DNA of 64,000 bases. Origin: Terrirhizobium terrae (lineage in GTDB: Bacteria > Pseudomonadota > Alphaproteobacteria > Rhizobiales > Rhizobiaceae). A model generated the notes under the pieces. That model was not told the origin of the DNA. It ran no database searches and saw nothing but the letters and a program-made list of their open reading frames with translations. This document shows, in pieces, positions 354-63,656 of this stretch. The position numbers and the translations under genes are program-made. How positions within the stretch are numbered: the stretch's first letter is position 1; the number at the start of each line of letters is the position of its first letter. Location: positions 496,001-560,000 of the forward strand of contig NZ_CP104991.1 in NCBI RefSeq assembly GCF_030323265.1, given 5' to 3'.

Positions 354-1031
354 TCACTCGCCTTCTTGGGGACGCCAATGGGGTGGGTAGGCGGCATCGT
401 AGCCAGCAATGGCCTCCATGCGGGTCAGCCAAGCTCCGATCGCCGGCAAAGTCGCGTTGAAGTCGTCCAGACCGAGATTCATTTCGACAGCTTCCGCTCG
501 ACGGCCGACTCGCGCAAGCATCTGCATATTGGGTAGCGCGACGATATCGGCGGCCGACACGCGGTCACCAGCCAGATAACAGCCATTTTGGAGAGCGTTT
601 TCCATCCACTGCACCGCGTTGATCGCCGAAGACGCCGACGATCGAATGGCGTCCGGGTTGTCCTGGCTATCACCCCTCAGCAATGGTCTGACGATTCCAA
701 GTGAAAGTAGGTCGCGAACGTAGTTCTCGAACTCGAAAATCGTCTCCTAGATAAGTCCGGTCTCGAAGGGATCTTCTCCGAATAACGCAGGTTCGGGATG
801 CGCCTTCTCCAGGAAAGACATGATCGCGACCGACTCCGTGATAGCCGTTCCGTTCGCGATAAAGGTCGGCACCTGGCCTCGAAAATTCAGACGTAAGTAT
901 TCGGGACTTTTGTGCCCTCGCGTGGAACCGTCGATCCGGTTGGATTTGTATCGGAGGGACTTGTATCCCAACGTGAGCATGACACGCCACGCATAGGGAC
1001 TGCCGCTGATCCAGTAGAGTTCGTATTCCAT
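354..1031 (-). pseudogene. glutathione S-transferase, interrupted by an in-frame TAG
   Basis: The frame from 1031 to 747 encodes a thioredoxin-fold GST N-domain (starting MEYELYWISGSPYAWRV, with a VPTFIANGTAITESVAI glutathione-site segment). The same frame continues from 744 to 354 with the helical C-domain (AGDRVSAADIVALPNMQ). Only a TAG at 747-749 separates the halves; Trp or Gln is the likely original residue. Restored length is about 225 residues, normal for a cytosolic GST. GSTs conjugate glutathione to electrophiles. A second GST lies just upstream and is broken in another way. Either this copy is inactive or the TAG is a base-call error; no frameshift is needed to restore it, unlike most broken genes here. 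Confidence 0.85.
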
Positions 1032-1126
1032 GCGATGTGCTCTCCAGTTCTTTTACGAGGGCCAGATCGGTTGACACTATTCGTTTCACGCAGCCGTATA
1101 GGGGACACGCTACCGTCGACGTCTAG

Positions 1127-1362
1127 CTAAATGCCGTTCACGCAGGCACTGTCGTCGGGTTCGGGGAAAAGTGCTGCCGACGCGAGGTCCTCAGGTGTTC
1201 CAAGGCGTGCGGACGGGGTTGTGGCCACGAGACCCGGCAGAAGGGAGCCGCCGGCCGGGTAGATCGCGGCCAAGCTCCCTTCCCGTCTGTAATTTTCAGG
1301 ATCTCGTGCGTCACGTCGACTTCGGAAACGCAGAGCATCCTGTGTTGACGCATTCCCCACAT
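1127..1362 (-). pseudogene. chimeric scrap of an MDR reductase joined to an SDR tail
   Basis: No intact frame is present. Read on the minus strand, one frame (about 1362-1275) gives SEVDVTHEILKITDGKGA, the nucleotide-domain segment of zinc-less quinone oxidoreductases; compare VDLTAEILRITGG in the gene at 3278-4389. From about 1270 a different frame gives an SDR-like end with VATTPSARLGTPEDLASAAL followed by VNGI and a stop at 1127. The two families are not normally joined, so this looks like the residue of a deletion that fused two degraded enzyme genes. Just upstream (about 1363-1440) an N-terminal Rossmann-like stretch LRIVVIGD is also visible but too short to assign. Confidence 0.5.
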
Positions 1363-1452
1363 TATTCGGTTCGCCTGCTGGGGAGGCGCAGCTTTAGGCT
1401 ACCGCCGGTTCGAAGGTCACCAATGACAACGATCCTCAATTGCGTGTCGATA

Positions 1453-2120
1453 TCAGAGGGTGACGCCGATGCTGTTGAGGAACGTATCCATGCGCTCATC
1501 AAGGTCACGCTTGGTTTCCACCCAGGCCGGAACGGTGTCCAGGAGGCGCTGATGCCAAGCTGTAAGATAGGGGAACTCGTTGAGCGGCGGCTTGGACCGG
1601 TCGATTTGTGAGAACGGAGCCGCGATGTCAATATCAGCCAAGGTCAGTTCGTCGCCGACCATAAACTGGCGGTTGGCGAGGTGGGCGTCTAGAACGGTGG
1701 CAGCGGCGCGGATCTTCTTATTGACGTACTCGACGATCGCCTCGTTCTGCGGCTTTCCCATGGCAGTAGCAGCCACGCGCTCGTCGAACAGCATGGTGAA
1801 ATAGATGCGCCACTGCTCGCCCGACCAGAACATCCACTGGAGGACTTCCGTACGTTGCTGCTCGGTCTTGCCGACGAGGGGCGAATTTACTTTTTCCGCA
1901 AGATACAGATTGATTGCCGCCGATTCCCAGACGACCGTATCGCCTTCCTGCAGCACCGGCGTCAGACCGTGCGGATTGAGTTGCAGGAACTCCGGAGTGT
2001 GGCTTTCTCCTTGAAAAGGTCGACGTTCACACGCTCGTAATCGACGCCCATGACCTTCGCGGCGACGGCGACCCGGCGGTAGCTGCCCGAGCCAAGGTCA
2101 CTATAGATTTTAATAGACAT
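1453..2120 (-). pseudogene. glutathione S-transferase with -1 frameshift
   Basis: An ATG at 2118-2120, eight bases after an AGGAG site, opens MSIKIYSDLGSGSYRRVAV, a GST N-domain. The frame is lost after FKEKATL. Adding one C near 1994-1996 restores PEFLQLNPHGLTPVLQEGD, the cis-proline/glutathione-site region, and runs through ESAAINLYLAEKV into a complete helical C-domain ending at 1453. Restored length is about 222 residues. The family conjugates or reduces substrates with glutathione in the cytosol. It sits between a LysR gene and the other broken GST on the same strand, so LysR control is plausible. The lost base falls in a short C run. Confidence 0.85.
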
Positions 2121-2215
2121 TTGTAGTCTCCTAGCTGGTCGCCATCCCGTGGATGGCGTGCGTAGAAGGTAGGTCATTCCAAACTGGACAATAAGGCAGA
2201 CTGATCGAATATGTT

Positions 2216-3130
2216 TTATTCCTTTATCGGATTAATGCCGAACCTTGTGGCGTTGACTTGCGCTTCGATGAATTCGACGAAAGCCCGGATTTTAGGGCTG
2301 ATACGTCTCCCTCCAGGCATTACTGCCCACAAATCAAGATCAGGCAGCACCCAGTCACTAAGAACTTTATGTACGGCTCCGCTTTCCAGTTCGGCTTCAA
2401 ACATCCACTCAGTTGCTATCGATAAACCAGCGCCTGCCAGAACAGCAGATCGGATGCCTTCCGTTGCATTAATCCGCAACCTTGGTTTGACCGACACCGA
2501 TTTGCTTCCTTTCGGACCCTTGAATGTAAAGCGTTCGCCACCCTCGCCTTGCGAAAAAACAACCATGGAATGTTCGGTCAGATCTTCTGGCTTATGTGGT
2601 GCTGCGTGCTTGGCAAGATAGGACGGGGTGCCGACGACGACGCGGCGACAGCGGCCAATGCGTTTGGCAACATAGCCGGAATCGTCAAGCTGGCCCATGC
2701 GGAGCGCGAGATCGATCCCCTGCTCGATCAGGCTAACATTTCGGTCGTCGAGATGGACCGAGATATCAATGGCGGGATGTTCATCAAGAAATAGCGGTAG
2801 CTTCGGGATAATATACTGGGACATGAACGTCAGTGTCCCGCCTACACGGATGTGACCTGAGAAGCTTTGTGACATAGTCCCGACCGAGGCTACTGCGGCC
2901 TCGGCATCTTCTAGAACCTTGGTCGCGTGTTCGTAGAATACGCGACCCTGCTCGGTCGGAATAAGCTGTCTGGTAGAACGCACCAAGAGCGGCGCGCCGA
3001 GTTCCTGCTCGAGTTGTGCGACAACTTTCGAGACCGCCGATTGACCCACGTCCAATAATTTAGCAGCGCCACTAAATGAACTTGTTTCGTACACGCGGAC
3101 GAAATAGCGCATCGACGTTATGAGATTCAT
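2216..3130 (-). CDS. LysR-family transcriptional regulator (CrgA-like)
   Basis: Intact 304-residue LysR protein. The N-terminus carries the winged helix-turn-helix (SFSGAAKLLDVGQSAVSKVVAQLE, residues about 18-41) with the usual TRQLIPTEQGRVFYEHA linker. A periplasmic-binding-like effector domain fills residues about 90-295 (IRVGGTLTFMSQYIIPKLPLFL). The ATG at 3128-3130 follows a GGAG. Neighbours on the same strand are a quinone reductase upstream and a GST downstream, both broken, which are its most likely targets. An imperfect TTCAA/TTGAG dyad at 3193-3208 lies about 65 bases before the start. Effector unknown. Confidence 0.9.
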   Translation of the reverse strand: MNLITSMRYFVRVYETSSFSGAAKLLDVGQSAVSKVVAQLEQELGAPLLVRSTRQLIPTEQGRVFYEHATKVLEDAEAAVASVGTMSQSFSGHIRVGGTLTFMSQYIIPKLPLFLDEHPAIDISVHLDDRNVSLIEQGIDLALRMGQLDDSGYVAKRIGRCRRVVVGTPSYLAKHAAPHKPEDLTEHSMVVFSQGEGGERFTFKGPKGSKSVSVKPRLRINATEGIRSAVLAGAGLSIATEWMFEAELESGAVHKVLSDWVLPDLDLWAVMPGGRRISPKIRAFVEFIEAQVNATRFGINPIKE

Positions 3131-3277: not shown

Positions 3278-4389
3278 TTACAAACGCTCCCCCGCGACCC
3301 GCCAAATCGAGACGCTGCTCCGTGTTAAGGGCGTGATAATATTGCCGCTTCGCTTTCCACTGAAGCCGTTCAAAGGGGAAACAGCATTATCCCTCGCGGG
3401 CACCCCTAATGTCACAATGACCTTTCCAAATTGCTGGCCGGATTCGAGGTGGCGGTGAGCTGCCACCATGTCTTCGAAGGTGAACACGCTGTCGATTATT
3501 GGCGTAATGTCCTTCCGACGAAGCGCATCCGACACATATTTGATTGCTTTGCGCTTACGATTGTCATCCGCCAAAAGGTCAGCGATGATCCATGCTTTGA
3601 TAGTGGCCCGGTGCATCAAAGCTTCCAGAACCGGGATTGTAGCAGTTTCCCCGCCCAAGGCTCCATACAGGTAGATTACGCCCTTCGGCACCGTCTTCAC
3701 CAAGCTCTGCAGAAGTTCACCGCCAACTGCATCGAATGCAACACGCGCACCCTTCCCCCGGTAATTCTCAAAATTTCGGCAGTCAGGTCGACTTCGGGGT
3801 AGATAACGACATGCTTCGCTCCAGTATCAAGCAACCTTTGCTTCTTCTCTTTGGTGCGGGTTAAAGCGATCGGGATTGCTCCAGCCATCTTTACAAGCTG
3901 GATGGCGGCTATACCGACACTGCTCGAGGCGGCTGAGATGATGACATGATCACCGGGCTGGATGCGCGCGTCCTCGATCAGGGGGCCGTAAGCGGTTAGG
4001 AACATAACCCAGATCGATGCAGCTTCCTCGAAACTCAGCCCTGCCGGCTGCGTGACCACGGCATGACCTGGTACGATGATCTCTTCGCCATAGATGCCGT
4101 ATGCGCCCATCGGGAAAGAGGGAACGAGGTTCACCTTATCTCCCACGGAGACGTGGGTTACGTCCCGGCCTAGGGCAAGAACGATACCTGCCGCCTCGGT
4201 CCCTAGCTGTGCGGGAAGGATCGGCTCAAAGATGTATTGCCCACGCCGGAACATCGCATCGGCGCGGTTGAGGCCGATAGCTTTCACAGAGATGAGCACC
4301 TCATCATCTTTGGGTGAAGCAGGAGTGCCGCTGACGAATTCAAGTACCTCAGGCTCACCTGTCTCCGAGAACTGTATGAATTGTGACAT
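3278..4389 (-). pseudogene. zinc-less quinone oxidoreductase (MDR) with -1 frameshift
   Basis: The start ATG at 4387-4389 opens MSQFIQFSETGEPEVLEF, then the MDR catalytic domain (GLNRADAMFRRGQY, LGTEAAGIVLALG) and cofactor domain (VIISAASSSVGIAAIQLVKMAGA). The frame breaks near 3750-3760 in a run of G on the coding strand. One added base restores GGKGARVAFDAVGGELLQSL and the remainder of the domain up to QQFGKVIVTLG. The family reduces quinones or activated double bonds with NADPH. About 35 extra residues follow the usual end, so the natural stop may also be displaced. Two inverted repeats lie in the 450-base gap upstream and may be operators. Confidence 0.85.
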
Positions 4390-4556: not shown

Positions 4557-4840
4557 ACACCGTTAGGCTCGTCGGTTACATGTGAGAAGTGTTACTGCGA
4601 AGCATCGACTCACGGCGGCGACAGCTCGGTAAGCTTGCATGATCTTTTGCATTAGCTGGAAGTGGATTTCACGGCGAAGCGGGCTTTAAAGCAAATGGGT
4701 GTATGGCTGGGAAGCGAAGGTAGCGTAATTTCACTATTCCAACGTAGAGTACCTATTATGCCAGTTCTTATCCTACCGCGAGATAGCGGCTGATCGCATC
4801 TGACGTGCTGCAATGATGCACGCACGAAAGGATCAGTCTC

Positions 4841-5589
4841 TTGTCTAAACTCGATGGAAAAATAGCCGTCATTACGGGTGGTAGCAGCGGGATCGGGCTC
4901 GCGACCGCTCAGCGTTTCGTCGATGAAGGAGCTTATGTCTTCATCACTGGCCGCCGCCTCGCCGAACTCGAAAGAGCCAAATCGACGATAGGCCGTAATA
5001 TCTCGTTCGTTCAGGGTGACGTCGCCAACCTCGAGGAACTCGACAAGGTATTCGCACAAGTGAAGGCAGAAAAGGGGATCGTCGATATTCTCGTAGTCAG
5101 CGCTGGCGTCGTCGAACATGCACCAGTCGACACTGCATCTCCAGAACATTTCGACAGAACGTTCGGCATCAACTCACGCGGCGCATTCTTCACCGTTCAA
5201 AAAGCCCTACCGCTGATGACCCGGGGCGGCTCAATTGTTTTGGTATCGTCCGGATTGCATTTGAAGGGCTTTCCTTCTCATTCGACCTATTCGGCGAGCA
5301 AGGCAGCGGTACGCTCATTCGCGCGCACCTTTGCAGCAGAGCTGAAGGATCGTGGCATCCGTGTGAACTCGCTTTCGCCCGGTGCAATCGATACTCCCAT
5401 TATTGAAAGCCAGTTCAAGACTACGGAAGAGGCCGATGGCGCGCGTTCGACCTACGCGCAGATCACCCCCTCGGCCGCCTTGGAAGAGCCGAAGAGATGG
5501 CAGCGGCAGCTCTGTTCCTGGCGTCCAACGAAAGTAGTTTTTCGACCGGCACAGATCTCGTTGCCGACGGCGGAATTACCCAGCTCTGA
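4841..5589 (+). pseudogene. short-chain dehydrogenase/reductase with -1 frameshift near the C-terminus
   Basis: The likely start is TTG at 4841 behind a GAAAGGA site, opening MSKLDGKIAVITGG. It has the SDR nucleotide motif TGGSSGIG, a central NAG-equivalent (VVSAGVV) and the catalytic YSASK. After QITP the frame slips. Six C instead of five at 5466-5470 restores [24 protein letters not shown] and the usual [11 protein letters not shown] ending, with a stop at 5587-5589. Uncorrected, the protein would run to 5611 with a nonsense tail of about 45 residues. Restored length is about 249 residues. It is an NAD(P)-dependent oxidoreductase of unknown substrate, followed closely by a second SDR gene. 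Confidence 0.8.
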
Positions 5590-6845: not shown

Positions 6846-7915
6846 TTGTCGATCCAGTCGACCAAGACGTCCGCTACCTTGATGTTCTCTTTGCCCTGCA
6901 TGAACATATGCGTGCTGCCCTTGATCCCGACATCGGGGAGCGAGAGGAAGGTAATGTCACCACCTGCCGCCTTGATCTGCTCCATTTCCTTGGCGCAGGC
7001 TGCGGCTGGGTTGTCGCCCATGTAATCGCCAACCACCACGAGGATGGGAACCTCGGCCAGCGCCTTGACCTGCTCCTCCGTCAGGTTGGAGAAACAGCCG
7101 GTCTCAAGCTGGATCAGGCCCTTGATATTACCTTTGCCCTTCAGGACTGCCTGGCTCGGAAATCCCGCCGACTGCGAGTGGCCGACGAGGATTGCCCCTC
7201 CGAGTTCTGCAGCCAGATCGGCAACGTTGGCGACGGTCGGGTTGTCAGTTTCAGGCTGGATCAGCTCGCCCAGCAGGCTCGGCACCTGGGTCTCGATCAT
7301 GTCAGGGATCACCTGCTTGGCGAATTCATCGATTGCCTCGATCGGGAACTGGACGTCTGGCCAAGCCTTGCCAAGTTCAGGACCGAATCTGAAGACTTTC
7401 CAGGCCATGGCCGACGTGCCAAGAAAAACCATAGGCTGCGCCTCAGGTGGCAGACTTTTGTTTTTCACCTGGTTGAAGATCGTACCGTTGAAGCCTGAGC
7501 GTGCCCGTCCCGTCTGTTCGGCAAGATAGGTGGGGAATCCCTGCCGCGTGAAATATTCGAACCAGCCCATGCGACCATCCGGCGTCGTTTCCCACTGCTT
7601 TGAAGAGAGCAGCCCGCCATGCATGAACACGATCGGCAGGTGCGTCGGCTTCGGCGGGGTCTGGAACTGGACATACATCTGATCGACGACGACATCACCG
7701 GCTTCGAAACTCTCGCCGAAGATGTCCTTGAGGTCGCCCCAGCCGGCGCTTTCGGTTTTGACGGTCCGGCCGCCGACGAAGAAACTACCCTGGCTCTGAA
7801 GCACAAGCGGCTCCGGTGCGGGCTTGATGTCGGAGAGCGATTGCGCCGAGGCACCGGCTGTACTGAGGAGAAGGGCAAGCACGGTTGCCTGCATCTTGGA
7901 GAGGATCTGCATCAT
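6830..7915 (-). CDS. secreted alpha/beta-hydrolase, esterase 713-like
   Basis: Intact 361-residue protein with a Sec signal peptide (MQATVLALLLSTAGASAQS, cleavage near residue 25), so it acts in the periplasm or outside. The oxyanion segment FMHGGLLS lies near residues 98-105 and the nucleophile elbow is GHSQSAG with Ser247. A C-terminal KGSTHMFM supplies the likely catalytic His. Size and motif order resemble the esterase 713 group. It probably hydrolyses a carboxylic ester. It is divergent from a LysR gene 136 bases away, the usual arrangement for LysR control. The ATG pair at its start follows AAAGG. Confidence 0.8.
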   Translation of the reverse strand: MMQILSKMQATVLALLLSTAGASAQSLSDIKPAPEPLVLQSQGSFFVGGRTVKTESAGWGDLKDIFGESFEAGDVVVDQMYVQFQTPPKPTHLPIVFMHGGLLSSKQWETTPDGRMGWFEYFTRQGFPTYLAEQTGRARSGFNGTIFNQVKNKSLPPEAQPMVFLGTSAMAWKVFRFGPELGKAWPDVQFPIEAIDEFAKQVIPDMIETQVPSLLGELIQPETDNPTVANVADLAAELGGAILVGHSQSAGFPSQAVLKGKGNIKGLIQLETGCFSNLTEEQVKALAEVPILVVVGDYMGDNPAAACAKEMEQIKAAGGDITFLSLPDVGIKGSTHMFMQGKENIKVADVLVDWIDNHVDR

Positions 7916-10232: not shown

Positions 10233-10801
10233 CTAGACGGTTACGCCTATCAGGCGTGCGATTGACATTTTCAACCGCTCGCCGAAAAACTGCGCGACCT
10301 CCGAAGGTGGATCAGTGACGCCGACACGCGCCTCGACGGAGGCCGATATACGATCGCGCAGATCGGGGTCGGTGATGCTGGCGTGTTCGACCAGTGCGCG
10401 GATGACCGTGTTGGTTGCAAGCTCCTGAGCGCTTTGCGCAAGAGCGGATTTCTCGCGTCTCTCCCTTTCAAGCTCCGCCTGGCTCTCCGCCTTTCGGCGC
10501 CTCGACCGAGTTCCGTGTTCTTTTTCCCAATAGCGGGCCGTACCGCGTACCATATAGAGTATGTCCCAGGCGTGTTCTGGATCACCCCCTTGGCCGTTTC
10601 CGCATTCGCACCACACAGGTGCAAAAATAGCTGACGCATGGCGACGTCCGCGAAGTAAGTCTGGTCGGTTGGGGGTCCAGTTAGCTGAAATGCAGCCTCC
10701 GACTCCTTTGCCGCCCTGATGATGGCTGCATGTATCGCATCCATCATAGTTCTTTCCACCTGCTTCAAAGCGTCGACCTTGTCCTGCACATCATTATCCA
10801 T
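10233..10801 (-). pseudogene. hypothetical protein with -1 frameshift
   Basis: Not recognised. The start ATG at 10799-10801 opens MDNDVQDKVDALKQVERTMM. The frame slips at 10585-10589, where six G instead of five on the coding strand would join HLCGANAETAK to GGDPEHAWDILYMVRGTARYW and run to a stop at 10233. The restored product is about 189 residues, soluble, with a basic central helix (RSRRRKAESQAELERERR) and no signal peptide or membrane segment. The good continuity of hydrophobic pattern across the join supports the frameshift. Function unknown; it stands alone between a LysR gene and the aldehyde dehydrogenase gene. Confidence 0.6.
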
Positions 10802-10990: not shown

Positions 10991-12444
10991 TCACCGCAGC
11001 AAGCCCGGTTTAAGGGCGATGTGCTTGTGCTCGATAAAGTCCTCGATCGCGGCAACGCCGTTCAGCCTCCCGAGACCAGATTGCTTGAAGCCACCCTCCT
11101 CCGTCCCGTCGTAAACTTTGGCCCAATCGTTAACGAACACGCTTCCCGCTTCAAGCGCCTGCGCGACCCGCAACGAGCGATCCAGATCCCGCGTCCAGAT
11201 CGAGGCGGACAGACCATAGTCGTTATCGTTTGCCAGCGCGACGGCTTCGCGCTCATCTAAGAACCGCTGGATTGTAATGACAGGACCGAATGTTTCCTGC
11301 TGCACGACCGGTAGACTGTTATCGGAGACTTCCAGCATCGAAGGACGAAAAAAGCGCCTTTCGCCAAAAGACCTTCTGTCACGGGACCTCCCCGAACGAC
11401 CGCAATCGCACCCTTCGCCAGCGCGTCTTGCACCACGCGGTCAACGCGGTGGACGTTCTGCTTGTCGATGAGCGGCCCCATATCGCTTGCCGGATCGGTT
11501 GCAGGTCCCACTTTGACCGCACGCAGCCTTTCGGCGAGACCATTGCGCACCAGTTCGTAGACTGAGTTTTGTACGAGCAACCGTGAGCCTGTCATGCAGA
11601 ATTGGCCGGCAAAGATGGTCAGAGCCTTTTCCAGGACGGGCAGCATTGCCTCGATATTGGCATCGTCGAACACGATCATCGGCGCCTTGCCGCCGAGCTC
11701 CAGCCCGAAGCGCTTCATTCTCTTCGCACCGACGGCGCCGATGGCCGCGCCCGTTTTCGTGCTGCCAGTGAAGCTGATCGTCGGTACATCGGGACTTTCG
11801 ACAAGGAGAGCTGCGCCCTCTGAACCGCTTTCGATAAACATGTTGACGATACCGTCTGGCAGGTCTGCGGCCTCCGCAAGAACCTCGGCCAGAACGCTCG
11901 CGATCTGGGCTGTCTGTCCGGGCATCTTAACCACGACGGCGCATCCGGCCGCGAGTGCCGGCGCGAACGAGCGAACCGAGAGTATGACTGGAGAATTCCA
12001 AGGCACGATGATCCCAGCCACTCCCATCGGCTGGCGCAGGACCACCGAAAGGCTGCCGGGCCTGGGCAGCGTCGCGCGGCCCGCCTCCGTTCGGGCCATC
12101 GCGGCCCAGTAGCGCAATTTGCTCGGGCTGCCGTCGACCTCGAACGCGGCCTCGCCGCGTAATTTTCCGTTTTCAAGCGAAAGAATGTCGATCAGGCGGT
12201 CGCGATTACGCTCGAACGCCATGGCCATCTGATCGAGCACTTTCGCGCGCAGTTCGGCGTCATGCCGCCAGTCGGAGCCACGAAACGCTCGCAGGGCCGC
12301 GTCTATCGCCGAGCGAGCTGCGGTTTCTCCATAATCCGGATAGTCTCCTATCGTTTCATAGGTAGCAGGGTTGATGGAGCTTTGGCGCGACGGCGACGTA
12401 ACAAAGCTTCCATCGATCCAGTTCTTTGCGGAATACCGGGTCAT
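10991..12444 (-). pseudogene. NAD(P)-dependent aldehyde dehydrogenase with -1 frameshift
   Basis: Restored length is about 484 residues. The N-terminus starts MTRYSAKNWIDGSF. The Rossmann domain has IVPWNSPVILSV and FTGSTKTGAAIG, the general base lies in LELGGKAPM and the catalytic Cys in GQFCMTG. The frame is lost in a run of T on the coding strand (11348-11353). One added T restores GAFFRPSMLEV followed by QQETFGPVITI and the terminal domain with GGFKQSGLGRL. It oxidises an aldehyde to its acid. It is the last gene of the minus-strand run with a metallo-hydrolase, alcohol dehydrogenase and pirin, so it plausibly takes the aldehyde made by that dehydrogenase. Confidence 0.9.
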
Positions 12445-12559
12445 TCAATGGCCTTTCTGATGATGGGCGGACGGACGTGACGCAGCCATCGGGGATGGCG
12501 TCCCGGACGAGCCGGTCGCGGCTCGCCCTCTCCGGCTCTTGACGGCGGGCGGGGTAGGG

Positions 12560-13702: not shown

Positions 13703-14820
13703 TCAGGCAACGTGCTCGGGAAACCGCAAAACCGCCTTGATGACGCGCCCCGCGGCAACGTCGTCGAACGCGGCGTTGATGTCGGCGAAGTCGTAGAAGG
13801 CGAGCAGCCTATCGAACGGGAAACGGCCGCTTCGATAAAGACCGACCAGTTCCGGAATCATCAGGCCGGAAATGGCATCGCCCTGGATAATCCCGATGAG
13901 GCTTTGCCCTACCGTGAGCCGGGAGGCATCGACGACCGCGCCCGAATGGTCATTGAAGGCGACGAAACCGAACTGCCCCATCGGAGCAAGAGCGCCGATG
14001 CCGGCATCGAGGTTCTCCTTCCGACCACTCGTGTCGAGAACGTATTCGACGCCGCGAGAGGTGATATCCCTGATCGCCGCGGCTACATCGGTTTGCGCAC
14101 GCGGGTTGACGCAATGTGTCGCGCCGAGTTCGTTAGCGAGCTTCAGCCGTTCGGCATTGACATCGATGGCGATGATGATTGCCGCATCGGCGACCTTGGC
14201 AGCCATGATTGCAGCCAGTCCCACTGCCCCCACTCCGAAGATCGCGATCGAAGCACCGACCGGCACTTTGAGCGCCTTCAAGACCGAGCCGGCTCCGGTC
14301 TGAAACCCGCAACCGAGCGGCCCGAGCACTTCGAGCGGAACATCGTCCGGGACCTTGACGGCATTGCGCTGATGAGCGAGCGCATAGGTGGAGAATGAGG
14401 ACTGACCAAAGAAGTGCGCATGGAGCCTGTTCCCGTCGGGTGCTGCCACGCCGATCGTTCCATCGAGCCTGGCGCCGGCGAAATTTGTTTCCCAGACATG
14501 ATCGCAATAGGCTGCATGGGAAGACATGCAGGGTTTGCAGTGGCCACAGGAGTGATAGGAAAGAACGACATGATCGCCGGGCTTGAGATGCGATACGGTC
14601 GATCCGACACGTTCGACGATGCCGGCGCCTTCATGGCCGAGGATCGCGGGGAGCGGCGTCGGCATGAGCTGTTGCCTGACATGCGCATCGGTCGCGCAAA
14701 TACCCGTAGCAACCATGCGAATGAGCACTTCGTCGGGGCGCGGGGCCTCAAGCTTCACTTCACGAAGAATGAAGGGCCCATTTTTTCTTCTAGTACGGCT
14801 GCGGTCGCTGATTGGGTCAT
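13703..14820 (-). pseudogene. zinc-dependent aryl-alcohol-type dehydrogenase with 5' frameshift
   Basis: The ATG at 14818-14820 follows AGGAGG and opens MTQSATAAVLEEK, then the frame slips in the T run at 14781-14786. Seven A on the coding strand would give NGPFILREVKLEAPRPDEV and join the long frame to 13703. Read as it stands, translation could only begin inside at a GTG (14758). The catalytic zinc site (GICATDAHV, GHEGAGIVE), four-Cys structural zinc loop (SCGHCKPCMSSHAAYC) and cofactor motif GVGAVG are present. Length of about 371 residues fits the benzyl/aryl-alcohol dehydrogenase group. It oxidises an alcohol with NAD to the aldehyde used by the neighbouring dehydrogenase. Confidence 0.85.
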
Positions 14821-28115: not shown

Positions 28116-28191
28116 GTCGAACCTCGCATCGTCGGCGGACCGCGATGCCTAACGAGCCGCCCACACTAAGACAATATCGACACACTGCCTA

Positions 28192-49647: not shown

Positions 49648-49875
49648 GATGATAGTAGCCCATTCCACGAATGTTTTTGATAACAAAACTCGGCCTTCGC
49701 GTCGCCAACTTTCGGCGCAGGCGGGACATTTTGAGTTCCGGGAGTTCGATTGGATCTCGTCGTTAACGGAATAGACCTGACCCCCAAGGGACGAGCGCAA
49801 CACGGTACGCCACGGTTTCGCAAAAAGTTTCCCTAGAGCGCAGCTTCCAATAGTTGAACGCACGCCTAAGAAAAT
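49634..49875 (-). pseudogene. response regulator remnant (DNA-binding domain only)
   Basis: Fragments of an OmpR-type winged helix closely match the end of the regulator at 29421: LLEAAL, RTVLRSSL, VYSVNDEIQSNS, then, in another frame, ELKMSRLRRKLATRRPSFV and IKNIRGMGYYHHEHK with a TAA at 49634-49636. At least two frame changes are needed even within this short piece, and the whole receiver domain with its phosphorylation site is missing upstream. This is more damage than a single base error. The stop overlaps the kinase start by 14 bases, as in the intact paralogous system. Confidence 0.7.
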
Positions 49876-50438
49876 TGGCATGGATAGAGCATGAGACGCG
49901 ATCATTTCTGACGTTTCCCCGCCGAAAATATGGATGGCTTGGCTGCCCTCCCGATCCAATGCTACAATGGCCGTCTATCAATCGTTGCAGCGCACTAACG
50001 CGGAAAACGTATGGCCGCCGAAAATTACGTGGAAGTTACGCGGAATTCTCGGCCGTGACGCCGACCCATGAAGCGAGCGAGCCGGCCGACGTGGTCGCGC
50101 GGTTTGTCCATCAGCAACGGCGGATTCACCATCCCGGGGCTGGATGCGTTCTGCCCGCGCTCTTGAACCGATACGAACCACTGACCCGCCGTTTGGTGGC
50201 TAATTTTGTAATGCTATTCCAAATTCGCCCAAACGTTTGCACCTCATGCTGGAACAATCGACGATCTCTCGACCCGCACAGTTTGTAACGAGCAAGCCGG
50301 CCGCGAGGTGCGGCAGCTAGCGCGGGGCTGAAGCCAAAGCTCCGCAAAGTACATTTCGTCTCGGATCGACCGTTGCAATTCGCGCGTACATGCGTTTATC
50401 GATTGTCCCGAGCCGATTTCACCACACCAGGAGCCACC
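49876..50438. other. non-coding stretch upstream of rpsU
   Basis: Apart from the possible far end of the response regulator remnant, no gene was recognised on either strand in these 560 bases. It must include the promoter of the S21 gene. The missing receiver domain of the regulator would have lain here, so a deletion end point is likely within it. Confidence 0.4.
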
Positions 50439-50680
50439 GTGCTTATCCTCGTCCGAGACAACAACGTCGACCAAGCTTTGCGCGTCCTCAAGAAAAACTT
50501 CAGCAGGAGGGCATCGTCCGGGAAATGCGTTTGCGTGAGCACTTCGAGAAACCCTCAGAAAAGCGCGCACGAGAAAAGGCAGAAGGCATTCGCCGCGCCC
50601 GCAAACTCGCCCAGAAAAAGCTGAACAGGGAGTTGCGTCTCGGTCCTGCGAAGAAGTCGAAGCCATCACGATCTAAATAA
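50439..50680 (+). pseudogene. rpsU: ribosomal protein bS21 with -1 frameshift
   Basis: GTG at 50439 behind AGGAG opens [19 protein letters not shown], the typical alphaproteobacterial S21 start. Six A instead of five at 50493-50497 restores [19 protein letters not shown] and the basic tail ([20 protein letters not shown]) to a stop at 50680. Restored length is 80 residues, slightly long owing to a Lys/Ser-rich end. S21 helps initiation on the 30S subunit. Rhizobia often carry more than one rpsU, so this could be an extra stress-linked copy. A damaged ribosomal protein gene otherwise points to a base-call error. Confidence 0.85.
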
Positions 50681-51007: not shown

Positions 51008-51406
51008 ATGAGCAAATTGCCCATTGACAGTGACAGACGGCGAATGATCTTCGATCAGGTTCGCACCAAGGCGATGTCACGTGGCACGCCTATCGACGAT
51101 GACCCCGAGTTCCTGGCTTGGGTAGAGCTGTGGATCAGTGGCGAGTACGAGATGTCCGACCTCAGGTCTAGATACAATGATCTCGTCGCACGTCGATCCC
51201 CGCGATCCAAGTCTGCCGCTGGTCCTCTGGAACCCGCCCCTCCGGAGCGACTACCCGGGATGCCGACTGAACCTGACGGCGTCTTTCCCGGCAGCCTTCG
51301 CATCATACAGAAGCACGTCGGCTTGCTTCAGCAGCTCGGACACATCACGCTTTTCGCCCGTCCAGGCCCCTCCTATGCTTGTGCGGACGTCGGCGATCTC
51401 ATTTGA
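51008..51406 (+). CDS. hypothetical protein overlapping the end of the GGDEF gene
   Basis: 132-codon frame starting MSKLPIDSDRRRMIFDQVRTK. The first 70 residues (PIDDDPEFLAWVELWISGEYEM, RYNDLVARR) have a clear protein-like pattern; the remainder is proline-rich and overlaps the converging GGDEF gene by about 156 bases. The true gene may end near 51240 with a missed frame change. Function unknown. It follows the hypothetical gene at 50750 and may share its transcript. Confidence 0.5.
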   Translation: MSKLPIDSDRRRMIFDQVRTKAMSRGTPIDDDPEFLAWVELWISGEYEMSDLRSRYNDLVARRSPRSKSAAGPLEPAPPERLPGMPTEPDGVFPGSLRIIQKHVGLLQQLGHITLFARPGPSYACADVGDLI

Positions 51407-52524
51407 AATAAAAATAGGCTCCCTCATCCGTGTGAGGATCCGCTCAGCGGCCGCTTCGCCTGTGGACCGATTGCCAGCAACAACCACAGCGAATTCATCG
51501 CCGCCCGTGCGTGCCACAAGATCGCTTTCTCTGACGGCTGAGGTCAGGCGCGCGGCTGTGGTTTGCAGGACGACATCTCCCATCGCGTGGCCATGAGCAT
51601 CGTTGATCTCCTTGAAGCCATCAACGTCGAGTGCGAGGACAGCAAAACCATCGGCAGACCTTAATGCCGCAAATTCTATCGACAGCCCACGCCGGTTCAG
51701 CAATCCAGTCAACACATCGGTGCGCGCCGTCTCCTCCAGCATCTCGATCCGGCGTCGTTCTTCGGTAAAATCGATTGCCATTCCGACAATCTTCACCGGT
51801 CGGCCGTCGCTGTCACGCAAAGCCGGCGATCGCAACGCATCCACCGTTCGCCGTGGACGGTATCGAGGCGATACTCGGCGACATGCTGATCGAGCTCACC
51901 AGCAATTAGCGGTGTAAGATCGGCCTGGGCGCCATCGTTGACGTTGACCCTGTTGACGTAGCGCTCAAGATCGAGGCGCGCCGCCGTCGGGCCTCCGATA
52001 AACTGAGCCAGTCGATCCGAGGTCTCGAACTTGCCTGTCAGGATGTCCAGCTGCCAAAAACCGCCACGAACGGCTTCAAGCGCCAACTCAAGCTGTGCCG
52101 CCCGCTCGGCAAGCTGACGCTCATGCTCCTTGTGGCGGGTGATATCCTCTATCTGCGATATGAAGCGTACGACCTTGCCCTCGGCATCGCGCATCGCGGC
52201 AACATGGATCAGGACGTGAACGATCTCGCCGAATGGGCGGAGATAACGCTTCTCGATCGTGTAACCATCCCGCCTTCCCTGCAGCACCTGCTGAAACAGG
52301 ATCAGGTCCGCCTCGATATCGTCTGGATGGGTAAAGTCCCTGAAATGCGTTCCCAGCACCTTTTCCAGCGGAAGCGACAGCAACTTGGCAAAAGCCGCGT
52401 TGCCGCGAATGATGCGCCCCTGAAGATCGACCAGAGCGATCCCGATCGGCGCATTCTCGAAGGCAAAGTCGAACAACGCTAGGCGGGTTTCTGGATCATC
52501 GGCCGTATACGGTTCCGCTACCAT
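51251..52524 (-). pseudogene. PAS-PAS-GGDEF diguanylate cyclase with -1 frameshift
   Basis: The first frame (MVAEPYTADDPETRLALFD) has a PAS domain (ENAPIGIALVDLQGRIIRGN, FTHPDDIEADL) with a PAC end, and a second PAS beginning near residue 135 (LELALEAVRGGFWQLDI). Frame is lost near 51832-51837; one added base restores SPALRDSDGRPVKIVG and the catalytic domain. That domain has TDVLTGLLNRRG, the active motif RTGGDEFAVV and an inhibitory RxxD site (RESD) five residues before GGDEF. It should make cyclic-di-GMP. No EAL domain is present. Restored length is about 424 residues and it has no membrane helix, so a cytosolic sensor. Confidence 0.88.
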
Positions 52525-52666
52525 CTTTCCTCCAAAAACAAGAGCTTCACGGCGATAGGTGTGTTTTAGGGGATGATAATCAAGGTGACGGTCCGCATTG
52601 TCGCCGAACGGCAGGCTACACCTGCGCCGGCTCCTTGATGTCAGACACCTTCGAAATTATCTCGGG

Positions 52667-52698
52667 CCTTATCGGAATAATCGAAGGCCCCGATAAGG
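52667..52698. promoter_or_regulatory. inverted repeat CCTTATCGG-N14-CCGATAAGG
   Basis: Nine-base perfect arms lie 38 bases before the start of the sigma-like small gene and 143 bases from the GGDEF gene start, in the divergent gap. It could be a hairpin or a protein site controlling either gene. Confidence 0.4.
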
Positions 52699-52735
52699 GG
52701 TGACCTTCGAGACCGATAAGATCAGGGAGGAAGAC

Positions 52736-52954
52736 ATGGATAGCAGGAGCCGGGGTCTTTCCACGAGCGACATGCGCATACTGAGAACGCTGTTGGGTCG
52801 CTACGCAGCACGCTACCATCTCGCTGGGCCAGAGAAAGATGACTTGATCGAACGAACGTTTCAGGCGTTGGCGAACAATCCGGACATCTTCTTTGAAATT
52901 CCGGTCGAAAAGGCAGCCGCAGAGACGATGCACCGGATCTACACCGGCCACTAG
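52736..52954 (+). CDS. small sigma-factor region-2-like protein
   Basis: 72 residues from the ATG at 52736, five bases after AGGGAGG. The sequence (ILRTLLGRYAARYHL, DDLIERTFQALANNPDIFF) resembles region 2 of ECF sigma factors, where DDLxQxTFxxAL is the core helix. It has no region 4, so it cannot act as an ordinary sigma factor. Such truncated proteins in alphaproteobacteria recall the sigma-like domain of PhyR, which titrates an anti-sigma factor. It may interfere with or assist stress sigma factors. It sits in the stress island and next to a DUF982 gene. Confidence 0.6.
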   Translation: MDSRSRGLSTSDMRILRTLLGRYAARYHLAGPEKDDLIERTFQALANNPDIFFEIPVEKAAAETMHRIYTGH

Positions 52955-58760: not shown

Positions 58761-59099
58761 ATGACATACGACCAAAATTTCAGGTCACCCGCACCCGGTG
58801 AGGATCTGGAAACGAAGAACCCGGCCATTTCCCTATCGGCTGAAAGCTCGTCAACGTCCGTTTCCGGTCCTCTTCATACTTCGGATGCACAACGTGTGGA
58901 TCAGGCGCTGAATTCCGTTCTTGAACATCGTAACGACCCTTATGTTGAGCCGAAGGAGAGACTGTCAGCACTGCGAGAAGAGGCTGATAGTCTTCGGTAT
59001 CGCGCATCGGATGAAGTACGCTTTCGAATTCGCAGGAATCCCTGGCAGGCAGTCGGGATTGCGGTCTTCGTTGGATATATGTTCGGGATCACGCGATAG
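58761..59099 (+). CDS. DUF883 (ElaB/YqjD-type) membrane-anchored protein
   Basis: Intact 112-residue protein starting MTYDQNFRSPAPGEDLET with an excellent AAGGAGG site. The long polar helix (RVDQALNSVLEHRNDPY, LSALREEADSLRYRASDEVRF) is followed by a C-terminal membrane helix (NPWQAVGIAVFVGYMFG), the ElaB/YqjD plan. E. coli relatives bind ribosomes in stationary phase. A candidate EcfG-type promoter precedes it. It is followed by the DUF892 gene, which has its own candidate promoter. Confidence 0.85.
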   Translation: MTYDQNFRSPAPGEDLETKNPAISLSAESSSTSVSGPLHTSDAQRVDQALNSVLEHRNDPYVEPKERLSALREEADSLRYRASDEVRFRIRRNPWQAVGIAVFVGYMFGITR

Positions 59100-59179
59100 G
59101 CCCACGCTTGCAGCGGCGGCGCCGACTGGAGCGCGTTGCCGAGATAAGCGTGTCAGCGTTCCTGGTACGGTGGCGTACG

Positions 59180-59205
59180 GGAACCGTTCAATCGCGACGA
59201 ACATT
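59180..59205 (+). promoter_or_regulatory. candidate EcfG-type promoter of the DUF892 gene
   Basis: GGAAC at 59180-59184, 19 bases, then TT at 59204-59205, 69 bases before the start. Confidence 0.5.
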
Positions 59206-59273
59206 TCCCGCTGTCACCGGTGCGGCGCGCGGTCCGCACCTCTTGCAACAGCTCACAAACGATGGAGGACGAC

Positions 59274-59774
59274 ATGGCAAACGCCAAGACTCTCGACGAC
59301 CTGTTTCTGGATACGCTGAAAGATATCTACTTTGCAGAAAAGCAGATTTTGAAGGCACTGCCGAAGATGGCGCGTGCGTCGCAGTCCGAGGAAGGCAAGG
59401 AAGGTTTTCTTCAGCATCGCGAGGAAACACAGGGCCAGATCGAACGGCTCGAACAGGTATTCGAGCTCCTGGGCAAGTCGGCACGCGGCAAGACCTGCGA
59501 AGCCATCCAGGGCATCATCGCCGAAGGTGAAGAGATCATCGAGGAATTCAAGGGATCGCCCGCGCTTGATGCCGGTCTCATCTCGTCTGCTCAGGCTGTC
59601 GAACATTATGAGATCGCGCGTTACGGCACGCTCATCGAGTGGGCCAAGCAACTCGGCCTGAAGGATGCTGTGCCGCTCCTCGAGCAGAACCTGTCGGAAG
59701 AAGTCGCCACCGACAAGAAGCTGACCGCCTTGGCGAAAGCTTCCGCCAACGACAAGGGCAAGAAAGCAGCCTGA
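59274..59774 (+). CDS. YciE/YciF-type ferritin-like protein (DUF892)
   Basis: 166 residues from the ATG at 59274, directly after GGAGGAC. It is all-helical (LDDLFLDTLKDIYFAEKQIL, LQHREETQGQIERLEQVFEL, AVEHYEIARYGTLIEWAKQLG). The paired acidic/His helix motifs EKQ, HxxET, ExxxQ and EHYE form the di-iron site of the ferritin-like DUF892 family. Relatives are induced by osmotic and general stress. It has a clear terminator after it and a candidate EcfG-type promoter before it. Confidence 0.9.
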   Translation: MANAKTLDDLFLDTLKDIYFAEKQILKALPKMARASQSEEGKEGFLQHREETQGQIERLEQVFELLGKSARGKTCEAIQGIIAEGEEIIEEFKGSPALDAGLISSAQAVEHYEIARYGTLIEWAKQLGLKDAVPLLEQNLSEEVATDKKLTALAKASANDKGKKAA

Positions 59775-59792
59775 TCAGCCGGAATGACGAGA

Positions 59793-59816
59793 GGCCGCCC
59801 GCAAGGCGGCCTTTTT
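59793..59816 (+). terminator. Rho-independent terminator of the DUF892 gene
   Basis: GGCCGCC (59793-59799) pairs with GGCGGCC (59805-59811) over a CGCAA loop and is followed by five T. It lies 19 bases after the DUF892 stop and before the catalase gene, which therefore needs its own promoter or read-through. Confidence 0.85.
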
Positions 59817-59843
59817 CTGTTTCATCAACCTGAGGACGGGCAA

Positions 59844-61975
59844 ATGGCCAAGAAGACACAATCATCGACCGATCAAGTCGCCATCCACGATCAGACACTC
59901 TCGCGCGGTGCAGGCGGCGAGCTTCATCAGACAGCAGAAGATGGCTTCGAAGTGCTGACGACATCGCAAGGCGCTCCGGTCGCCGACGATCAGAACACTT
60001 TGCGTGTGGGTCCGCGAGGCCCGGCTCTAATGGAGGATTTTCACTTCAGGGAGAAGATTTTTCATTTCGACCACGAGCGCATTCCCGAGCGGGTGGTCCA
60101 TGCGCGCGGCTATGGGGCGCACGGTTATTTCGAAACCTACGAATCACTCGCCAAATACACCCGGGCCGACGTCTTCCAGCGTGCCGGCGAAAAACCCCGG
60201 TCTTCGTTCGATTCTCCACGGTCGCCGGCAACAAGGGTTCTGCGGATCTCGCACGCGATGTCCGCGGTTTCGCTGTTAAGATGTATACGAAGGAAGGCAA
60301 CTGGGATCTGGTCGGGAACAACATCCCGGTCTTTTTCATCCAGGACGCAATCAAGTTTCCCGATCTCATCCACGCCGCCAAACAGGAGCCCGACCGTGCT
60401 TTTCCACAGGCGCAGACGGCGCATGACAATTTCTGGGACTTTATCAGTCTGACACCGGAAAGCATGAACATGGTCATGTGGATCATGTCGGATCGGACCA
60501 TCCCAAGATCGCTGCGCTTCATGGAAGGTTTTGGCGTCCATACCTTCCGGTTCATCAACGAGAAGGATGAGTCCACCTTCGTCAAGTTTCACTGGAAACC
60601 GAAGCTCGGCCTGCAGTCCGTCGCGTGGAACGAGGCGGTGAAGATCAATGGTGCCGATCCAGACTATCACCGCCGCGATCTGTGGCAGTCGATCCAGTCG
60701 GGCGACTTCCCGGAATGGGAATTGGGTGTCCAGCTCTTCGATCAAGAATTTGCCGACAGCTTCGATTTCGACGTCCTTGACCCAACCAAGATCATCCCGG
60801 AAGAGGTTCTGCCTGTGAAGCCGATCGGACGGCTGGTTCTGGACCGCATGCCGGACAACTTCTTTGCCGAAACCGAACAGGTCGCGTTCATGACCCAGAA
60901 TGTCCCGCCGGGAATTGGCTTCAGCAACGACCCTCTGCTGCAGGGCCGTAACTTCTCCTACCTCGACACCCAACTGAAGCGGCTTGGCGGTCCAAACTTT
61001 ACCCATCTGCCGATCAATGCGCCCAAGTGTCCCTTCGCCCATTTTCAGCAGGACGGCCATATGGCAATGCGCAATCCTGTTGGGCGGGTGAATTACGAAC
61101 CGAATTCGTTTGGAGAAGGTCCGCGGGAGAGCAAGTCTCGCGGCTATCGCCATTATCCGGCGGAAGAATCCGGCACCAAGGTCCAGCTTCGTCCAGAAAG
61201 CTTCGCCGACCACTATAGCCAAGCGAGACAGTTTTTCATCAGCCAGACGCCACCGGAACAGCGTCATATCATCATGGCGCTCACCTTCGAACTCAGCAAG
61301 GTCGAAACGGTCGCAGTCCGCGAGCGCATGGTTTCGCATCTGATGAACATTGATGATACGCTCGCCTCCGAAGTAGCTCATCGATTGGGTATGAAGTCCC
61401 TGCCGAAAGCCGCACCGGCGGCTGTTGCGACTAGAGAGGATCTTGAGCCTTCTCCAGCGCTCAGCATCGTCGAGCGCGGACCCAAGCGCTTTGAGGGCCG
61501 CAAACTGGGCATCCTCGTGACCGACGGTGTCGATGCGAAACTGTTGAAGGCTTTGACGAGCGCCATCTTGAAGAAAAAGGGCCTCGTGGAGCTTGTCGCT
61601 CCAAAGGTCGGCGGCGTGACAGCTTCCGACGGAAGCTTCATCGAGGCGCAGCATATGATCGATGGCGGCCCCTCGGTGCTCTTCGATGCTGTTGCGCTCC
61701 TTCCATCCGATGCAGGTGTCGAAGATCTGCTGAAGGAAGCGACAGCACGGGATTTCGTGGCAGACGCGTTCCAGCATTGCAAGTTCATCGGCTACAGCGA
61801 TGTCGCCCTGCCATTGCTTGAGAAAGCCGGTATCGCAAAGGACATTGACGAAGGTGTTCTGGAGCTTTCGGGCGGTGCAAGCCTGACGAGTTTCGTCGAG
61901 CAGCTCGGCAAGCTTCGCGTCTGGGGGCGTGAGCCGTCAGTGAAGCTCGGCCCGGCATCAGCAACTACAGCTTAA
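59844..61975 (+). pseudogene. katE: clade II (HPII-type) catalase with -1 frameshift
   Basis: The start at 59844 ([20 protein letters not shown]) is preceded by GAGGA. Frame is lost at the A run 60190-60194; six A would give [19 protein letters not shown] and join the catalase core. The catalytic His lies in [12 protein letters not shown], the Asn in [12 protein letters not shown] and the haem Tyr in [12 protein letters not shown]. The DJ-1/PfpI-like C-terminal domain of large catalases follows after about residue 545 ([15 protein letters not shown]). Restored length is 710 residues, right for a KatE-type enzyme. It degrades hydrogen peroxide in the cytosol. Neighbours are stress genes. Confidence 0.93.
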
Positions 61976-62509: not shown

Positions 62510-62527
62510 TCTGAATGTAAGTACGCA

Positions 62528-62551
62528 GGCGGGTGATCGACCTCACCCGCC
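62528..62551. terminator. hairpin after the DUF2934 gene
   Basis: GGCGGGTGA (62528-62536) and TCACCCGCC (62543-62551) pair perfectly over a six-base loop between converging genes. It lacks a T run, so termination is probable but not certain. Confidence 0.5.
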
Positions 62552-62574
62552 TTGCATGTGCTCTTATGAACATT

Positions 62575-62817
62575 TCAACCTTGGTGCAGTCGAAGCACGT
62601 CGCGAAATTTGACGGTATCGACTACAGCGCCGTTGTCGTCGGTAAGCTCAAACGATTGGCCATCGATCTCCTCTCCATTTAACACGCGCTGGGACAGGAG
62701 TTCGCGAGCTGAGCGAACGGCTTCGGCACGTGCCATTTCGATGTCTTGAAACTCGGCACCTTCCGGATCCTTGGAAAGGCGCTCTCCCTCACGGATATTG
62801 AAAAACAGTCGGATCAT
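62575..62817 (-). CDS. DUF6894-type small protein
   Basis: 80 residues starting MIRLFFNIREGERLSKDPEG. The pattern of two short strands (RLFFNI, D-x-EG), helix (MARAEAVRSARELLSQR) and C-terminal strands (FELTDDNGAVVDTVKFRDVL) fits the DUF6894 family, frequent as small orphan genes in Rhizobiales. Function unknown. It converges on the DUF2934 gene and is divergent from the Crp/Fnr gene. Confidence 0.8.
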   Translation of the reverse strand: MIRLFFNIREGERLSKDPEGAEFQDIEMARAEAVRSARELLSQRVLNGEEIDGQSFELTDDNGAVVDTVKFRDVLRLHQG

Positions 62818-62952
62818 GTGTCACTCCCTCATGCCCCTTCATAACCTAAGAACACGTCTTATGTTTCCTGCGAACTTCTTGTTTTTATGGATATCTCTGT
62901 TTACCGCACTAGGTAGCTTAATGGATGCAAGCAGGGCACCGGGACTGATCTC

Positions 62953-63656
62953 ATGAGCTGGACGACGAATAGGATCCTATCGATGCTCTCGGCCGATGTG
63001 GTCGCACGGCTCCGGCCTCATCTTGATCCGGTCGAGTTGCAGCAGGGGGAGCACCTGTTTGAATCCGATCAACAGCTACATCACGTATTCTTTTTGAGGG
63101 AGGACTTTCGTCCGAAATTGCTGGCGGTACCGGCGACAAGAACATCGAAGTCGGTTGCATAGGTCTGGAAGGGTTTTCAGCGGTACCGGCAATCCTCGGG
63201 ATCGATAACACTCCGCATTTTGCATTCATGCAATGCGGCGGCCCGGCACTCAGAATTGAGGTTACGGCGCTCCGTGCAGCGATGGACGAATGCCGCCCGT
63301 TTCGTGACATTCTCATGCGCTATGCTCACGTTTTCCTGATCCAAGTCGCCACAACAGCTCTTGCCGACGGTCGGTACGGCGTTGAAAAAAGGCTTGCCCG
63401 CTGGGTGCTGATGGGACGTGACCGCATCGGCAATGAGCTGCCGCTGACGCACGACTTTCTGGCACTGATGCTTGGTGTCCGCCGTGCGAGTGTTACAGAC
63501 GCGCTACACCGTCTCGAAGGCAAACACGCGATCAAGGCCGAGCGCGGTCTCATTCTCATCAAGGACGTCGAAAAACTGAAAGAGCTTGCCGGCCCGATCT
63601 ATGGCATTGCGGAGAAGCAATACGAGCAGCACATCCGGCACGACTGGCGCTATTAG
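62953..63656 (+). pseudogene. Crp/Fnr-family regulator with -1 frameshift
   Basis: MSWTTNRILSMLSADVVARL opens a cyclic-nucleotide-binding-type domain (VELQQGEHLFESDQQLHHVFF). The slip is at 63102-63103, where one extra G restores GLSSEIAGGTGDKNIEVGC and LEGFSAVPAILG. The helix-turn-helix is in the C-terminal third (LTHDFLALMLGVRRASVTDALHRLEG). No Cys cluster for Fe-S is visible, so it is not an FNR oxygen sensor. Restored length is 234 residues. This short-form Crp/Fnr is common in rhizobial stress regions, and its target may be nearby genes. Confidence 0.88.

What the first reader, a model, noticed from the sequence alone, without database searches (positions are those of the whole stretch)
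354..63656. About twenty genes carry single-base interruptions, mostly -1 in homopolymers
Reading frames restored by one added base at 1994-1996, 3750-3760, 5466-5470, 10585-10589, 11348-11353, 14781-14786, 17005-17007, 50493-50497, 55106-55111, 60190-60194 and 63102-63103, among others. Most of these lie in runs of A/T or G/C, and the restored products are full-length family members. Plus-one events are few (near 22278, 27318, 32755, 36781). The affected genes are unrelated in function and include rpsU and catalase, while neighbours are intact. That spread fits systematic consensus error better than biological decay. If real, it would be an extraordinary pseudogene load.
Basis: seen in the sequence. 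Interest (0 to 1): 0.72.

Follow-up and report, generated by a model that had tools for sequence, protein, structure and literature searches.

The report
Sequencing errors at a methylation site
About one in five genes checked on this bacterium's chromosome reads as broken, single-copy genes for RNA polymerase and a tRNA synthetase included, and the breaks cluster in runs of one letter and at the sequence GANTC, so they are likely reading errors on methylated DNA rather than real gene loss.

Summary
The chromosome shows the same: 56 of 298 genes broken, 69 events in 236 kb, against 2 and 1 events per 98 kb in two control comparisons. Single-copy rpoB and seryl-tRNA synthetase are cut short. In-frame stops are not raised and selection is unchanged after the breaks. 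Bases are lost in homopolymers; bases are gained at GATTCG/CGAATC, which contains the CcrM motif GANTC: 25 of 33 extra-base events against 2.2% of random places, and GATTC/GAATC tops all pentamers by insertion rate. The genome encodes an intact CcrM homologue. Likely source: unpolished nanopore sequence of native DNA; platform and methylation are inferred. Both error kinds are in print, GANTC-linked errors in agrobacteria included. An artefact, with a readable methylation footprint as its one interesting side.

The parts
1462..2187 (-). glutathione S-transferase-like gene; frame break, a base fewer than in the relative, beside a homopolymer
   Evidence: 1 of 1 relative
3404..4389 (-). zinc-binding dehydrogenase-like gene; frame break, a base fewer
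   Evidence: 4 of 4 relatives
4805..5586 (+). short-chain dehydrogenase-like gene; frame break, a base fewer, in a C run
   Evidence: 4 of 4 relatives
6914..7915 (-). unnamed gene; frame break near its end, a base more; doubtful
   Evidence: no second relative covers it
10245..10789 (-). hypothetical gene; frame break, a base fewer, beside a homopolymer
   Evidence: 1 of 1 relative
10994..12462 (-). aldehyde dehydrogenase gene; frame break, a base fewer, beside a homopolymer
   Evidence: 3 of 3 relatives
13706..15017 (-). alcohol dehydrogenase gene (named by synteny); frame break, a base fewer, in an A run; a second event lies in an upstream ORF extension and is doubtful
   Evidence: 3 of 3 relatives for the first
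16145..17807 (+). MFS transporter gene (named by synteny); two frame breaks, a base fewer each
   Evidence: 3 of 3 relatives each
23559..24507 (-). L,D-transpeptidase gene (named by synteny); frame break, a base fewer, beside a homopolymer
   Evidence: 3 of 3 relatives
26216..28166 (-). S9 family peptidase gene (named by synteny); frame break, two bases fewer in the DNA alignment
   Evidence: 3 of 3 relatives
36189..37243 (-). MFS transporter-like gene; one frame break that passes the filter (a base fewer) and two raw ones that do not
   Evidence: 1 of 1 relative
49637..49892 (-). short ORF with frame breaks and stops; may be a real remnant; doubtful
50340..50677 (+). ribosomal protein S21 gene; frame break, a base fewer, in an A-rich run
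   Evidence: 4 of 4 relatives
51254..52933 (-). PAS-GGDEF (diguanylate cyclase-like) gene; two frame breaks, one base fewer and one more
   Evidence: 10 of 10 and 3 of 3 relatives
58942..59771 (+). DUF892 gene; frame change beside an 11-base gap; doubtful as a single-base event
59784..61972 (+). catalase katE gene; frame break, a base fewer, beside a homopolymer
   Evidence: 1 of 1 relative
62864..63653 (+). hypothetical gene; frame break, a base fewer, beside a T run
   Evidence: 1 of 1 relative

Best explanation
The frame breaks are likely consensus errors of an unpolished nanopore-type assembly and not gene decay: bases were likely dropped in runs of one letter and added at GANTC sites that the cell's own CcrM enzyme is predicted to methylate. 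Shown here: the breaks occur in every compared stretch of the chromosome sample and cut short single-copy rpoB and serS; missing bases gather in homopolymers; extra bases gather at GATTCG/CGAATC; an intact CcrM homologue is encoded. Inferred: that the reads were nanopore reads of native DNA, that these GANTC sites carry N6-methyladenine, and that the disturbed signal made the base caller add a letter in most reads at about a third of the conserved GATTCG/CGAATC sites. The window shows mostly missing bases likely because few such sites could be compared there (9 reference sites under alignments, 2 kept).
For: Chromosome: 69 events in 235.9 kb, 56 of 298 genes, against 2 in 98.2 kb and 1 in 98.1 kb in controls. 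Events in 19 of 19 compared 20-kb bins. rpoB and serS single-copy and truncated. Extra bases: 25 of 33 at GANTC against 2.2% of random places; GATTC/GAATC first of all pentamers, 18 of 192, control 0 of 54; 23 inserted against 51 kept GATTCG/CGAATC sites, control 0 against 10, six other motifs 0 against 524. Missing bases: 20 of 36 beside runs of 4 or more against 7.0%; loss rises with run length; G/C runs of 6 scarce on all three contigs. CcrM intact. In-frame stops 16 of 298 against 6 of 120 and 4 of 123; third-position share 0.813 after breaks against 0.778 in intact genes. Same error kinds in print.
Against: No reads, no platform record and no methylation data were seen. The error is narrower than GANTC: GATTC followed by A, C or T shows no clean insertion among 43 kept sites (5 messier indels), and 51 of 74 GATTCG/CGAATC sites are right. 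8 of 33 extra-base events, the one in nusG among them, are not at GANTC by my test, none of the 3 extra-base events of the window is, and 16 of 36 missing-base events are not beside a run of 4. The control runs of length 5 and 6 are too few to test (0 of 11). The missing-base rate is higher in the window than on the chromosome (17 in 39.7 kb against 36 in 235.9 kb), so a few real pseudogenes may be mixed in.
Confidence: 0.9

Rival explanations
1. Real, recent gene decay: the strain has lost many genes through replication slippage, perhaps with a repair defect.
For: The breaks are in the sequence as deposited and many lie in homopolymers, where slippage also acts; a very recent burst would leave selection marks unchanged.
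Against: Single-copy rpoB and serS are cut short; nonsense changes are not raised; extra bases favour one methylation motif rather than repeats.
Confidence: 0.03
2. Consensus error, but from another platform or cause (for example single-pass PacBio reads or low depth), with the GANTC bias due to sequence context alone and not to methylation.
For: Platform and methylation are inferred; the error depends on the base after GATTC.
Against: The motif is that of the encoded CcrM, six other motifs show no clean insertion among 524 kept sites, and GANTC-linked errors are in print for nanopore assemblies of agrobacteria and Brucella.
Confidence: 0.08
3. Programmed frameshifting or a changed decoding rule makes the broken frames functional.
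For: The protein sequence on both sides of each break is conserved.
Against: The relatives used carry these genes in one frame; the events are spread over unrelated genes and sit at homopolymers and a DNA motif on either strand, not at one slippery site.
Confidence: 0.005

Closest known systems
GANTC-linked errors in nanopore assemblies of agrobacteria (PMC12710330, passages seen)
   Different: The passage speaks of SNP errors near motifs; here single-letter insertions at GATTCG/CGAATC break frames. Other errors there are small indels and homopolymer errors.
GANTC-linked errors in Brucella nanopore assemblies (PMC12392509, passages seen)
   Same: GANTC and CcrM found in the assemblies and tied to errors.
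   Different: Only two potential errors were tied to the motif there; here 25 events in 236 kb of genes.
Modification-mediated nanopore errors and Modpolish (PMC10687267, passages seen)
   Same: Systematic errors at a strain's modified motif, removed by whole-genome amplification.
   Different: Listeria, motifs GCAGC and GCTGG; reads and close relatives were used, here only the assembly and relatives.
Homopolymer and Dcm-motif consensus errors (PMC6591954, passages seen)
   Same: The same two classes: homopolymer length and methylation motif.
   Different: Klebsiella, Dcm motif CCWGG.
Gene-fragmenting errors in long-read assemblies (Kastor, PMC12007338, abstract and outline seen; Homopolish, PMC8011154, passages seen)
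   Same: Apparent pseudogenes caused by indel errors; rates of 23.3% before correction (Kastor) against 18.8% of genes here (56 of 298).
   Different: The correction itself was not done here.

Membership tests
Nanopore-type homopolymer consensus error | Loss of bases that rises with run length | tested here: met
   G/C runs of 3, 4, 5, 6: 5 of 2242, 7 of 274, 5 of 31, 3 of 5 lost one base
Nanopore-type homopolymer consensus error | Long runs scarce across the whole assembly | tested here: met
   G/C runs of 6 at 0-17 per Mb on the window and three contig samples, 63-111 per Mb in six sets of relatives
Nanopore-type homopolymer consensus error | Reads or platform record show nanopore sequencing and correct length in accurate reads | not testable with these tools
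Modification-mediated nanopore error | Errors centred on one methylation motif | tested here: met
   GATTC/GAATC first of all pentamers; 25 of 33 extra-base events
Modification-mediated nanopore error | Every instance of the motif is affected alike | tested here: not met
   GATTC before A, C or T: no clean insertion among 43 kept sites; error confined largely to GATTCG/CGAATC; not required by the published cases, listed as a limit
Modification-mediated nanopore error | Matching methyltransferase encoded | tested here: met
   RAMA and N6_N4_Mtase domains, 6pbd CcrM at E 1.4e-161
Modification-mediated nanopore error | Errors vanish in amplified DNA | not testable with these tools
   needs an experiment
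Pseudogene decay | Nonsense changes and relaxed selection accompany the indels | tested here: not met
   stops 16 of 298 against 6 of 120 and 4 of 123; third-position share 0.813 after breaks, 0.778 in intact genes
Pseudogene decay | Indispensable single-copy genes are spared | tested here: not met
   rpoB and serS one match each, open frames 1253 and 299 residues against 1407 and 426 in G060
Programmed frameshifting | A conserved shift site shared by relatives | tested here: not met
   the reference ORFs of relatives are in one frame by construction of the test, and controls show 2 and 1 events

The most novel reading that the evidence does not exclude
The deposited assembly is a fossil record of the cell's methylation: by comparing an unpolished long-read genome with a relative, without any raw signal, one can read off which methyltransferase motif was active (here CcrM's GANTC), so public assemblies with odd pseudogene loads could be mined for methylation motifs.
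Probability: 0.55. Interest if true: 0.45.

Novelty: not a real feature. Interest (0 to 1): 0.22.

Why it matters
Taken at face value this genome would be reported with about a fifth of its genes broken, rpoB among them, and would mislead work on gene content or plasmid decay that uses it. It should be flagged or polished before reuse. The two error signatures give a simple test, needing only the assembly and a relative, for other genomes with unusual pseudogene loads, and they point to GANTC methylation in this bacterium.

Tried and rejected
Plain DNA gap counts at 80-82% identity did not separate this genome from its relatives (185 one-base gaps in it against 199 in G010, 212 against 242 for G009; that script then stopped on a shell error before its control and window parts). 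Codon-aware alignment was needed. A first version with loose flank rules gave false events in controls (13.6% and 10.6% of genes; 6.7% and 5.6% after a first tightening), several of them near ORF starts, where upstream extensions are read. The filter removed these, and with them 27 of 96 events of this genome (80 of 298 genes broken without it, 56 with it). DNA-level concordance over several relatives in the window was too strict, since gap placement shifts between relatives.

A reference-free count of the erroneous 7-mers showed nothing, because GATCTCG and its complement are common in relatives too; the matching shortage of GATTCG/CGAATC does show on the chromosome (211 per Mb against 338-389 in three sets of relatives). 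In the window it cannot be judged, since plasmid-like references range from 0 to 526 per Mb.

Low completeness as a general marker was rejected: G059 (78% complete) shows 0 breaks in 20 genes of a 40-kb stretch. The idea that the plasmid alone decays was rejected by the chromosome sample. G060 is the closest relative found by one 20-kb stretch among 53 genomes scored (four more in the genus were not scored). A search for 'nanopore' with 'GATTCG' listed 5 papers; by titles and abstract starts none is about such errors, and none was opened. The strain was not identified; the search for Neorhizobium with nanopore was seen as a listing only, as were those apart from the papers opened.
Full report
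WHERE THE WINDOW LIES. The window is part of an 806-kb contig of a 5.89-Mb genome in three contigs, with an estimated completeness of 91.25%. It is therefore likely a member of the Neorhizobium group; this is inferred. Parts of the window are syntenic with the At plasmid of Agrobacterium fabrum C58 and with a plasmid of A. pusense, and its right end with plasmid pNCHU2750c.

THE OBSERVATION. I aligned intact reading frames of relatives to the window with an aligner that permits frame changes. Sixty genes could be compared (39.7 kb after trimming the ends); 17 are broken, with 20 events, 17 of them missing a base. Two control comparisons between the Agrobacterium plasmids gave 3 events in 22.6 kb and 2 in 22.3 kb. 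Of the four plus-one places, one is a frame change but with two bases fewer, one is seen only below my flank test, one is not confirmed, since the ORF matches its family over the full profile, and one, in a class C beta-lactamase ORF, I left alone.

IT IS GENOME-WIDE. The same test on 680 kb of the chromosome against the closest relative found (G060, 89% DNA identity in genes) gave 298 genes, 235.9 kb, 56 broken genes and 69 events, 36 missing and 33 extra. Controls between G010 and G060 gave 2 events in 98.2 kb (2 of 120 genes) and 1 in 98.1 kb (1 of 123 genes), although that pair is more distant, at 83%. Without the end filter this genome shows 96 events in 80 of 298 genes. Each of the 19 twenty-kb bins with aligned genes holds at least one event.

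ESSENTIAL GENES ARE HIT. The broken genes include those for RNA polymerase beta (rpoB), NusG, seryl- and arginyl-tRNA synthetase and a TRCF-domain protein (Mfd by recall). The rpoB and serS families have one match each in the genome, in open frames of 1253 and 299 residues, against 1407 and 426 in G060. That these genes are indispensable is established knowledge; the single match and the truncation are shown here.

IT DOES NOT LOOK LIKE DECAY. In-frame stops are about as common as in controls: 16 of 298 genes, against 6 of 120 and 4 of 123. After the first break, differences from the relative fall on third codon positions at least as much as in intact genes: share 0.813, against 0.778 in intact genes and 0.792 before the break. 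A recent burst of mutation would also leave selection unchanged, but not rpoB and serS broken in a living strain.

CLASS ONE, MISSING BASES. Of 36 chromosomal missing-base events, 20 lie within 4 nt of a run of at least 4, against 7.0% of random places. Loss rises with run length: G/C runs of 3, 4, 5 and 6 lost one base in 5 of 2242, 7 of 274, 5 of 31 and 3 of 5 cases; A/T runs of 4, 5 and 6 in 0 of 392, 7 of 82 and 2 of 18. The control pair has 1 of 57 G/C runs of 4 short by one (and one short by two), and too few longer runs to test, 0 of 11. G/C runs of exactly 6 occur 0, 12, 17 and 6 times per Mb in the window and in samples of the three contigs, against 68, 96, 111, 64, 63 and 95 per Mb in six sets of relatives. 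So all three contigs are affected.

CLASS TWO, EXTRA BASES. Of 33 extra-base events, 25 leave GANTC at the place when the extra letter is set aside (27 if one base of play is allowed), against 2.2% (4.6%) of random places. A count over all pentamers, ranked by insertions over occurrences plus 20, puts GATTC/GAATC first, 18 of 192, while the control pair has 0 of 54. The context is narrower than GANTC. Of 119 GATTCG or CGAATC sites of the relative, 51 are kept, 23 carry one inserted letter and 45 are changed otherwise; in the control pair 10 of 29 are kept and none has a clean insertion. GATTC followed by A, C or T shows none beside 43 kept (5 messier indels); GACTC none beside 20 kept; GAGTC 2 beside 21 kept. 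Six non-GANTC motifs show no clean insertion beside 524 kept sites, with 24 messier indels set aside. The rpoB, serS and both argS events are of this class; the one in nusG is not by my test.

WHY GANTC. [quoted passage not shown] The genome has one RAMA-domain match, at C1:2583813; among the 14 control genomes of that search only Caulobacter has one. Its 376-residue frame matches the solved CcrM, 6pbd, over residues 21-370 at E 1.4e-161 and has the methylase and RAMA domains. It is intact in this assembly.

MECHANISM. The pattern is what is expected of nanopore reads of native DNA: homopolymers are read short, and a modified adenine disturbs the signal so that most reads carry the same wrong letter and the consensus keeps it. 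Published parallels, seen as passages: homopolymer and Dcm-motif errors in K. pneumoniae (PMC6591954), modification-mediated errors in Listeria (PMC10687267), GANTC-linked errors in agrobacteria (PMC12710330; SNP errors in the passage) and Brucella (PMC12392509; two potential errors), apparent pseudogenes in nanopore-only genomes (PMC8011154) and, from its abstract, a pseudogene rate of 23.3% falling to 5.6% after correction (PMC12007338). Platform and methylation state are inferred here, since no reads were available.

WHY THE WINDOW LOOKED DIFFERENT. None of the window's 3 extra-base events is at GANTC. The window's missing-base rate is higher than the chromosome's (17 in 39.7 kb against 36 in 235.9 kb). 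More runs, some true pseudogenes and noisier references may all add to it; I did not settle this.

VERDICT. The interruptions are almost surely not a feature of the organism. The general kind is already in print. The remaining point of interest is that the motif of the cell's methyltransferase can be read from the errors of a deposited assembly and a relative alone.

Noticed in passing
window 53849-53939 (-): A ROSE-type RNA thermometer (Rfam RF00435, 48.9 bits against a gathering score of 45) lies just upstream of an Hsp20 gene (Hsp20 by the annotated NCHU2750 counterpart).
   Followed up: no
window 50340-50677 (+): A ribosomal protein S21 gene sits on this 806-kb contig near stress genes (Hsp20, katE, DUF892); close relatives of the stretch occur in several genus mates. 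Whether another S21 gene exists in the genome was not tested.
   Followed up: no
window 1-64000 against G000:C1:2960001-3640000: Missing-base events are more frequent in the window (17 in 39.7 kb) than on the chromosome sample (36 in 235.9 kb); cause not settled.
   Followed up: partly
L213-L214 (G059:C4:520001-560000): Another genus mate with low completeness (78%, 4 contigs) shows 0 frame breaks in 20 genes, so its low score has another cause.
   Followed up: partly
window 21450-23417 (-): Intact cis-3-hydroxy-L-proline dehydratase (AcnX family) gene, above the curated NCBIfam cut-off, lying between genes that neighbour each other in the syntenic Agrobacterium plasmids.
   Followed up: no
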